Assembly: GCA_905221605.1 (NCBI GenBank)
Contig: CAJNDS010000469.1
Span: 201,001-265,000 of the forward strand
DNA length: 64,000 nt
DNA from: Symbiodinium natans
Taxonomy: Eukaryota > Sar > Dinophyceae > Suessiales > Symbiodiniaceae
Reading direction: 5' to 3'
Shown here: in pieces, positions 35,623 to 37,871 of the stretch
Layout: every line of letters begins with the position of its first letter
How positions within the stretch are numbered: the first letter of the stretch is position 1
The notes under the pieces: generated by a model
Database searches by the model: none
Told to the model about the DNA's origin: nothing
The model's input: the letters and a program-made list of their open reading frames with translations, nothing else
Position numbers and translations under genes: made by a program

Positions 35623-37871
35623 CTATGGAGCACACTTGTCAGGTAGCTTGGTGGATGCCCTTGCAGCCAGCAAGCATACCTTGGTAGCCCAGTAGCCATA
35701 CTACAGTAAGGGCACCCTTTTTGGGGTTGGTTACTTGATAAAGGGAACCCAGAACCAAAAAAAAAAAAAAACCACTGGGCTACCAAGATGCCGATCCGAA
35801 AAGGGGCAAGCTGAGATGCACCGGTAAGGCTCCGCATGATGGCACCAAGCAGCCACCGACCCTGGCCATGATCTCGCAGCTGGGCAGTGCCTAGACCCAA
35901 GAGTAGCCTAGGACCCTAGGAATAAAAAAGGGCGCCCTTTTGTGGGTTAAAGAGGCGAAAAAGGGAACCTAAACGCAAAACATAAGGGAAGAAGGGCCTA
36001 CTCCGGGTCCAAGGTGCTGTCTTCTGACACCACTGAGGAAAAACATCTGCCAAGGCCACGTACATGGCCACCGCTACCAGGGATAAGGCTCCCCGCGCCA
36101 GCATTGCCATGGATATCCTGGGTTGGAGCGTTAGCTACGTGATGCTGTGAAAAATCGCGGGTCGTAGTCTGAGAAAGACCAAAACTATATAAGGATCCCA
36201 CATCATCACCCGGTAGCACGAAGACGCTGTCGACCGTCCCCATCGCGCAGGCAATCAGACTCACCCCAGCCACCACGAATCCGGAAACTTGTGCTCGGTT
36301 GCGGCCAAGGTCCCTGGCCCTGCTGGCCAACATGCAGCCAAACACATCCGACCCACTGATGAGCAAGGCACTGAGGAAGGGGTTGGTGGAGAGGGAGTCC
36401 GCAGAATAGCTCAAGCCATAATAGGCAAAGACTGTGGCCATGAAACAAAACGCCAGGTGCACCAAGTCCTTCTGCATCGAGCGGCTCATGCCATGGGCCT
36501 TCTCCAGGCCGGTGCTATGGGCATAGCTGGGAGGCGTCATCAACGCCTTCGGGAGCGACCCGACCACAAGTCCAAGATCTGGGAAGGCCGTGCAAAGGCC
36601 GAGAAGCAGTGGGAGGCCGAGCCACATCAGTGCCTCAACTCGCCAGTCCGTATGGAGGGTCAAAGTCCCACAGCTCATGGCCATCAGCATGGACACAAAG
36701 GCATAGACGGTGTTCTCAAGGGCACAGAGCTGCGGGCCATAACCGGGGAAGCAGTTTTGCATGTAAATGTACTGGACACCATGGATGTTGAGGCACATCC
36801 CGTGAAGCAGCCTCACTCCACACAAGAGCGTCATGCTCAGCATGGTGATATAAGGCAGGGTAACGGTTGCTACGGACACGGCCAGCATGGTGACACCCAA
36901 GAGGACAAGGACCTGCTTCAGGTCAAGCCTCTGCATCAGGGGGTGCAGTGCGATGGCACCGAGCAGCCAGCCAATGAACATGAATGTCTCGCTGATCTTC
37001 ACCTGGGCTTCACTCAGTGCCAGCGCGGGATCCTGGACAATCTTCCTGTCGATCAAGACCGGCAGAGCCTCGGTTGCACAGCGACCTAGGAAAAGCTTGA
37101 CAGAAAACCTCTTCTTGCATGATCTTCGAAGCTCAAGAGGAAACCTAACCCCTGAACACAACAAAGAATGCGGAAGGAAATCATACCAACTGACCCTAAA
37201 CCCTAAACCCTAAACCCTAAACCCTAAACCCTAAACCCTAAACCCTAAACCCTAAACCCTAAACCCTAAACCCTAATTGGGGGCCCAGGAGCTTGCCAGG
37301 CTACCTGGAAGGCCCCTATGCAGATTCCCACGCCCAAGAAGGTCCTCATCGCCAAAGTGCGGCTTTCCTTACTGCTGGCTTCGTAGGGAAACGGTTGGGG
37401 GCTAGGGGTTAGGGGTTTAGGGTTTAGGGTTTAGGGTGGGTTAGTAGAGAAACCAGGGAATGAGGTACCCTGTATATTCCATTATTATAGGGGGATGTAG
37501 GGTACCTCATTCGCTCATTCTCTACTAACCAACCCTAAACCCTAAACCCTAAACCCTACACCCTAAACCCTAAACCCTAAACCCTAGGTTTCGCCGGGAT
37601 GCAACCTTCGGGTCCTCTTCAAGCTTCCTTTCCCGAAGCTCCTCGGAGTTGCACCAGGCCGATTTTGCAAGAGTACTTCTAGGGTTTAGGGTTTAGGGTT
37701 TAGGGTTTAGGGGCCATCAACCCTAAACCCTAAACCCTAAACCCTAAACCCTAAACCCTAAACCCTAAACCCTAAACCCTAAACCCTAAACCCTCTCCGC
37801 TGAGCAGCTCGTCGCTGTATGGCGAGGCCAAGCGCGCCAGCAAAGGCGGTAGCTGCAAGGATCGAGGCCAT
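35623..37871 (-). CDS. Major facilitator superfamily transporter, 7 exons, complete model
   Basis: Exons on the minus strand are 37792-37871, 37583-37678, 37272-37401, 36170-37131, 36018-36117, 35792-35890 and 35623-35679. They sum to 1524 nt, 507 codons plus stop, and every junction keeps frame. The protein starts MASILAATAFAGALG, a hydrophobic N-terminus that could be a signal or transit sequence. TM1 is near residues 78-98 (RTFLGVGICIGAFQVAW). Exon 4 holds most of the helices. Residues near ALADVFPQW and SCEIMARVGG match the conserved stretch after helix 10-11 in SLC22/organic-ion type MFS carriers (consensus E-V-F-P-T then A-R-V-G-G), and the end LPDK resembles the family LPET. The family moves small solutes across a membrane; the substrate cannot be told. 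The exon 4 start is uncertain: 37131 and 37095 both keep frame. Six introns are of three kinds: telomeric, TIR element, and one 52-nt GA-AG. Confidence 0.8.
35680..35791 (-). mobile_element. Introner, family A (CTTGGTAGCCCAGT...), forming transporter intron 6
   Basis: This 112-nt GC-AG intron has the target duplication GCAT/GTAT (one mismatch). TIRs CTTGGTAGCCCAGT and its complement lie at the ends, with an internal T/A run. Removal joins PLFGS to VCLLAARASTKLPDK in frame, the last helix and C-terminus of the carrier. Confidence 0.75.
35891..36017 (-). mobile_element. Introner, family J (GGACCC...), forming transporter intron 5
   Basis: This 127-nt GC-AG intron equals one copy of the target GCAC plus an element with TIRs. 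On the coding strand the left end is CTTGGACCCGGAGTAGG and the right end is CCTACTCTTGGGTCTAG. GCAC is present on both sides. Removal restores an uninterrupted, gap-free match to the MFS motif (DVFPQWCQKT joined to ALPSCEIMAR). Confidence 0.75.
36118..36169 (-). other. Transporter intron 4: 52-nt GA-AG intron
   Basis: The conserved helix ISMAMLARGALSLV lies one frame away from the preceding exon. Removing 52 nt from GACTACG to CCAACCCAG restores frame and MFS homology. The segment has a CTAAC branch-point-like site 12 nt before a C-rich tract and AG. It has no TIR and no clear target duplication. A sequencing indel is the alternative. Confidence 0.6.
37132..37271 (-). other. Transporter intron 3: telomeric donor side only
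   Basis: The exon ends directly at a run of about ten GTTTAGG units (coding strand). The acceptor half is ordinary sequence ending in a pyrimidine-rich TTTCCTCTTGAG. A second in-phase acceptor at TTTTCTGTCAAG would put the boundary at 37096. Confidence 0.6.
37402..37582 (-). other. Transporter intron 2: telomeric arms around a TIR element
   Basis: This 181-nt GT-AG intron begins with GTTTAGGG units on the coding strand and ends with CCCTAAA-like units and CCTAG. In its centre (37439..37530) is an inverted-repeat element with arms of about 33 bp, beginning GGTTAGTAGAGAA at both ends. The flanking exons join in phase 2. The whole intron can fold as nested hairpins. Confidence 0.7.
37679..37791 (-). 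other. Transporter intron 1: telomeric-repeat hairpin intron
   Basis: On the coding strand this 113-nt intron starts GTTTAGGG and continues as about ten TTTAGGG units. It then has a short non-repeat loop near 37711-37720, then about four CCCTAAA units ending CCCTAG. The flanking exons join in phase 2. Nothing but telomere heptamers and the loop is present, and the two arms are reverse complements. Confidence 0.75.

What the first reader, a model, noticed from the sequence alone, without database searches (positions are those of the whole stretch)
37679..37791. Intron built from head-to-head telomere repeats
Seen: exon-phase-compatible GT-AG intron, on the coding strand (GTTTAGG)n, a short loop, then (CCCTAAA)n CCTAG. 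The donor is the heptamer itself (G|GTTTAGG) and the acceptor is a one-base variant (CCCTAG). Seven exons of a recognisable MFS carrier join in frame only if this and similar introns are removed. Inference: telomeric DNA has been co-opted, or captured during repair, as spliceable intron sequence. I know of no described intron class of this kind.
Basis: partly seen in the sequence, partly recalled or inferred. Interest (0 to 1): 0.95.

Follow-up and report, generated by a model that had tools for sequence, protein, structure and literature searches.

The report
Strand-sorted telomere repeats around algal exons
In the dinoflagellate alga Symbiodinium natans, scraps of telomere sequence fill many introns, in the introns checked with the G-rich strand beside the intron start and the C-rich strand beside its end; the reported intron is an extreme case that is almost all telomere, probably not a separate class of intron.

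Summary
The repeats are really there. The window is Symbiodinium natans: P0002 and P0029 match it exon by exon and sit on a contig of the same length, 948,203 bp. Coding strand: 76 nt (TTTAGGG)n, 6 nt, 33 nt (CCCTAAA)n, between two exons with Symbiodinium homologues. The proposed telomeric splice sites are unproven: they fit homologues best, but 11 of 11 introns in the mapped parts of two annotated proteins have GC/GA donors and AG|G acceptors outside arrays. The intron is one of very many: 23% of the window is telomeric. Arrays within 120 nt of their nearest splice site obey a strand rule, 20 of 20 (G-type at donors, C-type at acceptors); farther arrays do not (4 of 8). Genome-wide, C-array–85/115 nt–G-array outnumbers the opposite 107,320 to 41,057; at 330–360 nt they are near equal (140,501; 135,937). 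Actin copies show arrays in existing introns; a repeated gene-like sequence shows a clean 54-bp insertion against two empty copies. Best reading: repair-derived interstitial telomeric repeats, filtered by splicing. Telomeric splice sites here: both ends about 1 in 3, at least one about 1 in 2.

The parts
37680..37712 (-). acceptor-side array of MFS intron 1; reads (CCCTAAA)n on the coding strand, 33 nt
37719..37794 (-). donor-side array of MFS intron 1; reads (TTTAGGG)n on the coding strand, 76 nt
Other in-frame models begin at 37800, 37797, 37784 or 37808 and end at 37679, 37676 or 37642
   Evidence: RNA of 37640-37803 folds at -84.4 kcal/mol, z -7.41, 0 of 200 shuffles as low
37792..37871 (-). 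MFS exon 1 (3' end uncertain: 7 nt longer to 17 nt shorter)
   Evidence: similarity to P0005 and P0010
37606..37678 (-). MFS exon 2 (5' end uncertain)
   Evidence: similarity to P0005
37368..37605 (-). MFS intron 2 (best model, tied with 37609-37372): G-type array on donor side, C-type on acceptor side, 92-bp self-complementary core between
37293..37367 (-). MFS exon 3 (annotated model P0002 starts inside it)
37069..37292 (-). MFS intron 3, in the annotated S. natans model (CAA|GCTCCT...CCGAG|GCTCT), one G-type array 16 nt from donor
36218..37068 (-). MFS exon 4
36018..36117 (-). MFS exon 5
35789..35890 (-). MFS exon 6
35626..35676 (-). MFS exon 7
   Evidence: P0004, P0005, P0006, P0009, P0013 match
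586..4124 (-). first seven mapped exons of annotated S. natans protein P0029; two more lie beyond the window's left end in L036; residues 1-146 of 293 mapped
2194..2752 (-). P0029 intron 4: GAG|GCCTTGG(TTTAGGG)n ... (CCCTAAA)n...CTTCAAG|GTG, G-array 5 nt from donor, C-array 16 nt from acceptor
63072..63125 (+). 54-bp (TTTAGGG)n inserted in a repeated gene-like sequence (placement free by 2 nt); absent from copies L034 and L035
62895..62962 (+). 68-nt (CCCTAAA)n stretch standing where the two other copies have 27 nt (read by eye)

Best explanation
S. natans carries very many short interstitial arrays of the dinoflagellate telomere heptamer. They arise as insertions (shown at one locus against two empty copies; break repair is inferred from likeness to mammalian cases) and change length afterwards (array lengths differ among tandem actin copies). 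In genes, arrays sit in introns, in actin in an intron that also exists without them. Near splice sites one strand is strongly preferred. A C-type array holds no G, hence no AG, GT, GC or GA, so it is silent just upstream of the true AG|G acceptor; a G-type array there would offer a TTTAG|GG decoy acceptor every 7 nt. Beside the donor the G-type array is kept, perhaps because G-runs help weak GC/GA donors (inference). An exon thus tends to sit as C-array, exon, G-array, and an intron as G-array ... C-array. MFS intron 1 is the limit where the middle has shrunk to 6 nt; it folds into one long stem. It is most likely removed by the ordinary spliceosome, at the array edges (favoured by homology) or at sites just outside (favoured by what other introns here use).
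For: Sense known from annotated or conserved exons: arrays within 120 nt of their nearest splice site, each counted once: 15 of 15 in introns of P0029 and P0002 (the script itself printed 15 of 16 because it also scored the single array of P0029 intron 1 at its farther site) and 5 of 5 in actin loci L031-L033; 4 of 4 more in MFS introns 1 and 2, where exons rest on homology. Arrays over 120 nt from both sites: 4 of 8, an internal control. Genome-wide matches, C-then-G vs G-then-C: 107,320 vs 41,057 at 85-115 nt; 140,501 vs 135,937 at 330-360 nt; 2,280 vs 6,271 at 1-30 nt. Adjacent arrays at 61-150 nt: window 51 CG, 18 GC, 28 CC, 17 GG (CG vs GC p 8.8e-5); 14 sampled loci 25, 10, 16, 12 (p 0.017); above 200 nt CG vs GC 12 vs 28 and 6 vs 21. 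Of 76 islands, 6 share short (18-26 nt) matches, the rest none. 5 of 6 C/G-flanked islands in window 1-4200 hold exons of P0029. Filled and empty site. Array in actin intron C in 4 of 10 copies, 71-127 nt.
Against: No RNA was available; splicing rests on protein models and homology. The rule was noticed on P0029 before it was counted there, so the genome-wide counts are the cleaner test; they count match starts, not independent loci, and allow other arrays in between. Of the actin loci held only L031-L033 were counted; in L033 two G-type arrays lie upstream of the first coding exon, against the rule if that side counts. Decoy acceptors do not explain G-type arrays at donors. In the repeated gene-like sequence at 62.7-63.4 kb, not known to be spliced, the arrays also lie C-then-G around a 109-bp piece, so that layout alone does not prove an exon. 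A weak codon model put 37 of 76 islands above 0 against 42% of their shuffles.
Confidence: 0.6

Rival explanations
1. Telomeric introns: inserted head-to-head telomeric DNA brings its own GT donor (G|GTTTAGG) and acceptor (CCCTAG) and becomes a new intron. Being its own reverse complement, it would work in either direction.
For: For intron 1 these junctions are in frame and score best against the homologues, and a GC donor with an AG|G acceptor scores far lower (834.5 vs 785.0); head-to-head arrays with gaps up to 30 nt exceed tail-to-tail 6,271 to 2,280.
Against: 0 of 11 annotated introns and 0 of 12 anchored actin introns have ends inside an array; acceptors are AG|G in 23 of 23, not AG|A. 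Actin intron C exists without arrays in 6 of 10 copies. Models with one non-telomeric end score nearly as well (829.0-824.0).
Confidence: 0.3
2. Introner origin: the introns descend from TIR-bearing introner transposons whose terminal repeats contained the heptamer and later expanded.
For: Direct repeats across intron ends are slightly longer than in mismatched pairs (mean 3.1 vs 2.6, n=16, permutation p 0.017; longest GAGGAC and GGACAG). Introners with 4-bp target duplications and TIRs are reported in S. microadriaticum (PMC9860276, passages).
Against: No shared element seen between the intron ends or islands beyond the heptamer and short matches; introns 1 and 3 of P0029 have an array at one end only; some actin copies of the same intron lack arrays.
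Confidence: 0.15
3. Nucleation bias: intron 5' parts are G-rich and 3' parts C-rich, so repair or slippage seeds G-type arrays at one end and C-type at the other with no selection.
For: Degenerate GGGTT-like stretches follow the donor in array-free actin intron E of L032 and L033 (by eye).
Against: Not tested quantitatively; 20 of 20 is stricter than a composition bias would readily give.
Confidence: 0.2
4. Break healing and telomere fusion alone (telomerase caps both ends, then they join), giving G-then-C with no role for splicing.
For: Insertion and deletion patterns match break repair.
Against: Predicts no dependence on distance to exons; observed proximal 20 of 20 but distal 4 of 8, and a C-then-G excess at exon-size spacing that is gone at 330-360 nt.
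Confidence: 0.08
5. Assembly artefact.
For: Simple repeats are hard to assemble.
Against: 1,644,368 and 1,643,300 16-mer matches on the two strands, reversed-word control 143 and 148; annotated proteins run across the arrays exactly; actin copies differ in array length.
Confidence: 0.02

Closest known systems
Short interstitial telomeric sequences inserted at double-strand breaks in rodents and primates (PMC2246262, passages read)
   Same: pure telomere block inserted with no change, or with a deletion, and nucleotides in register with the break
   Different: dense and strand-sorted around exons here; telomerase involvement not tested
Telomere-like TTTAGGG repeat bands of Eimeria tenella (PMC9131526, passages read)
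   Same: alveolate genome with interspersed heptamer arrays in bands
   Different: no strand rule around splice sites in the passages seen; CAG repeats are the other main repeat there
Introner elements of Symbiodinium microadriaticum and Amoebophrya (PMC9860276, PMC7789003, passages)
   Same: inverted ends in introns, predicted hairpin, dinoflagellates
   Different: here the inverted ends are telomere arrays, not a transposon family; arrays also outside introns
Short telomere motifs (telo boxes) in Arabidopsis and rice (PMC3022908, passages)
   Same: interstitial plant-type telomere motif in and near genes
   Different: single short motifs, enriched in 5' UTRs rather than introns; the words 'orientation' and 'strand' do not occur in its main text
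Internally symmetrical stwintrons of Hypoxylaceae (title only, in a reference list seen)
   Same: intron with internal symmetry
   Different: not telomeric as far as I recall; not read

Membership tests
interstitial telomeric sequence | tandem units equal to the species' telomere unit, away from chromosome ends | tested here: inconclusive
   TTTAGGG arrays inside a 948,203-bp contig. TTTAGGG is given as the dinoflagellate telomere unit (PMC11453091, passages); the chromosome ends of S. natans were not checked
interstitial telomeric sequence | insertion absent from an ancestral or paralogous empty site | tested here: met
   54-bp insertion, two empty copies, for one locus
introner element | many introns sharing homologous sequence | tested here: inconclusive
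   none seen among 11 annotated introns (ends, by eye) or 76 islands, too small a sample to exclude families
introner element | target-site duplication at intron ends | tested here: inconclusive
   weak excess, n=16, p 0.017
GT-AG intron with telomeric splice sites | donor and acceptor inside the repeats | tested here: inconclusive
   in frame and best by homology for this intron, not decisive; 0 of 23 other introns
spliceosomal intron of Symbiodiniaceae | GC/GA/GT donor and AG acceptor between conserved exons | tested here: met
   removal from RNA not testable with these tools
head-to-head telomere fusion | G-strand running into C-strand at a junction | tested here: met
   structure at 37680-37794; whether two telomeres ever fused is not testable here, so it is not filed as one

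The most novel reading that the evidence does not exclude
Telomere repeats have become a genome-wide splicing element: G-type arrays act as enhancers behind weak GC/GA donors, C-type arrays act as the acceptor tract, and their perfect complementarity zips the two intron ends together, so that repair-inserted telomeric DNA, splice-competent in either direction because it is its own reverse complement, continually remodels introns and sometimes makes new ones, MFS intron 1 being one.
Probability: 0.25. Interest if true: 0.92.

Novelty: new variant of a known kind. Interest (0 to 1): 0.7.

Why it matters
Strand sorting of telomere repeats by distance to splice sites is a countable sign that splicing filters simple-repeat insertions. 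It turns an old question, how new DNA is tolerated in or becomes intron, into one that the S. natans full-length transcripts and strain comparisons could answer. It may also explain why genes with short exons in such genomes are hard to find by similarity (one family search here found few exons).

Tried and rejected
Codon-score test of islands: the first version had some training loci on the wrong strand; the corrected one separated islands only weakly (37 of 76 above 0, shuffles 42%; other spacers 3 of 29, 4 of 29, 7 of 44; GC 60% against 53-55%); not used as proof of coding. PF00118 as a source of conserved multi-exon genes gave 6 matches. Pfam scans of four window ORFs and of P0005, P0029 and P0030-P0033 gave no family. 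Rfam at gathering scores: none. The second concatenated-exon protein search, for longer candidates, found nothing; the first found P0029. One repeat family behind the C/G islands was rejected. A fully typical GC/AG|G model for intron 1, which I had expected, fits the homologues worse (785.0). Papers: in the listings of searches no title or shown abstract start concerns telomeric introns or a strand rule; PMC8045281, the S. natans genome paper, has 0 occurrences of 'telomer' in its main text. The library holds open papers only; the 2023 dinoflagellate introner paper seen as a reference I did not try to fetch. So absence from print is not shown.

Full report
Identity of the window. The window lies in G000:C469:201001-265000 of a 759-Mb assembly. 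A protein search with the long MFS exon returned SLC22A6 of Symbiodinium natans (P0002), a later one an unnamed S. natans protein (P0029). P0002 matches the window exactly over its length and P0029 over residues 1-146 of 293, exon by exon, partly in L036; their contig is listed as 948,203 bp, the length of C469. S. natans is a dinoflagellate of Symbiodiniaceae.

The observation. The coding strand carries 76 nt of (TTTAGGG)n, 6 nt, and 33 nt of (CCCTAAA)n, between exons 1 and 2 of an MFS-like carrier. It is no isolated curiosity: 289 arrays make up 14,809 of 64,000 bases of the window; 14 loci sampled elsewhere (134 kb; 6 of 20 asked for were not available, one has a masked part) average 7.2%, from 0 to 19%; and a telomeric 16-mer matches 1,644,368 times forward and 1,643,300 times reverse in the genome against 143 and 148 for the reversed word.

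The gene. Homologues align over the exons down to 35626. Exons 1 and 2 are supported by similarity to P0005 and P0010; the annotated model P0002 starts only in exon 3. I enumerated donors (GT, GC, GA) and AG acceptors for introns 1 and 2 and scored 1060 in-frame models against six homologues, of which three reach into exon 1. For intron 2 the best pair lies outside the arrays (AAG|GTTGCATC ... CAGTAAG|GAA, tied with CCC|GAAGGTTG ... GCCAGCAG|TAA, which gives the same peptide).

What introns look like here. Mapping of P0029 (8 introns within residues 1-146) and P0002 (3 introns) gives 10 GC and 1 GA donors and 11 of 11 AG|G acceptors. Twelve introns in three actin loci, anchored by eye on conserved exon sequence and not independent of each other, give AG|G in 12 of 12, donors 8 GA, 2 GC, 2 GT. 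A review reports GC/GA donors at 25-74% in Symbiodiniaceae (PMC11453091, passages). Against this a GT donor with an AG|A acceptor would be unusual.

The strand rule. In sense orientation each array within 120 nt of its nearest splice site in the annotated introns is G-type beside donors and C-type beside acceptors, 15 of 15; arrays farther than 120 nt from both sites agree in 4 of 8 (the script's own line reads 15 of 16 because it scored one array at both ends of a 120-nt intron). Actin L031-L033 add 5 of 5; MFS introns 1 and 2 add 4 of 4 by homology. Other actin loci were not counted, and two G-type arrays upstream of the first coding exon in L033 do not fit if that side is included. I first saw the pattern as an excess of C-array, about 100 bp, G-array spacing in the window, then tested it genome-wide: 107,320 C-G against 41,057 G-C at 85-115 nt, nearly equal at 330-360 nt (140,501 and 135,937), and the reverse, 2,280 and 6,271, at 1-30 nt. 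These count match starts, so long arrays count several times in both directions. Five of six C/G-flanked islands in window 1-4200 hold exons of P0029. Among 76 islands of 60-150 nt only 9 alignments of 18-26 nt, in 6 islands, were found, so no single mobile element explains them.

Where arrays come from. A repeated gene-like sequence at 62741-63361 (I read it as retroelement gag-like; its relatives P0030-P0033 match no Pfam family) was compared with two other copies in the genome, L034 and L035. At one place both read GTGAAGTAC-TTCAAGTC where the window reads GTGAAGTCCTT, 54 bp of telomere repeat, CAAGTC: a clean insertion sharing TT. At another, by eye, 68 nt of C-type array stand where the copies have 27 nt. 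Whether this copy is expressed or spliced is unknown. Mammalian telomeric insertions show the same classes, no modification and deletion, with nucleotides in register (PMC2246262, passages). In actin, intron C carries a C-type array in L032, L037, L039 and L043 (71-127 nt) and none in L031, L033, L038, L040, L041, L042. So arrays occur in an intron that exists without them, and vary in length.

How it most likely works. Shown: insertion at one locus, residence in introns, strand sorting near splice sites and its loss farther away. Inferred: selection through splicing. The C-type heptamer has no G, so it holds neither AG nor any donor; the G-type heptamer offers TTTAG|GG, which fits the AG|G acceptors seen here. 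That accounts for C-type arrays before acceptors. For donors I can only suggest help from G-runs (recalled from vertebrate splicing work, not tested) or pairing of the two ends: intron 1 with flanks folds to -84.4 kcal/mol, z -7.41. Pairing cannot be the whole story because introns with a single array keep the rule.

Novelty. The kind of thing, interstitial telomeric repeats, is known, also as bands in the alveolate Eimeria (PMC9131526, passages). A strand rule around exons was not seen in the listings of my searches, which cover open papers only.

Noticed in passing
window 37439-37530: 92-bp self-complementary (78%) core between the two arrays of MFS intron 2, like a small inverted-repeat element; no second copy in the loci searched.
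   Followed up: partly
window 35236-35375: By eye, an inverted-repeat element (GGGGCCGGAATAATTA ... TAATTATTCAGGCCCC) that contains a C-type array.
   Followed up: no
L032, L037, L039, L043 (actin intron C): Tandem actin copies with arrays of different length in the same intron, an apparent record of length change.
   Followed up: partly
window 3500-3730, 6106-6625, 7403-7490, 29508-29727: Long arrays of 8- and 9-nt or changed heptamer units (GGGTTTAG, AGGGTTTT, AAACCCTTC, TGGGGTT), relatives of the telomere unit.
   Followed up: no
window 45916-47670: Gene on the minus strand with long exons; relatives P0017-P0026 and P0028, among them proteins of S. natans and S. microadriaticum; no Pfam family above cut-off.
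   Followed up: no
L026:9874-9955: Island whose translation DFFYLPMDFSSKRNRGYA matches RRM_2 (PF04059, the Mei2-type domain by recall) weakly, 16.7 bits, below the cut-off of 25, with AAACCCAG directly before it.
   Followed up: partly
window 62741-63361: Repeated gene-like sequence whose frame, continuous in P0030-P0033, is interrupted by both arrays in this copy; dead copy or spliced gene, not decided.
   Followed up: partly
window 32990-33083: ARAGORN tRNA-Ile call overlapping telomeric arrays; probably false.
   Followed up: no
L031 intron A: An intron after SGMCK in one actin gene that L033 and the copy at the end of L032 lack at the same place: a gain or loss worth dating.
   Followed up: no
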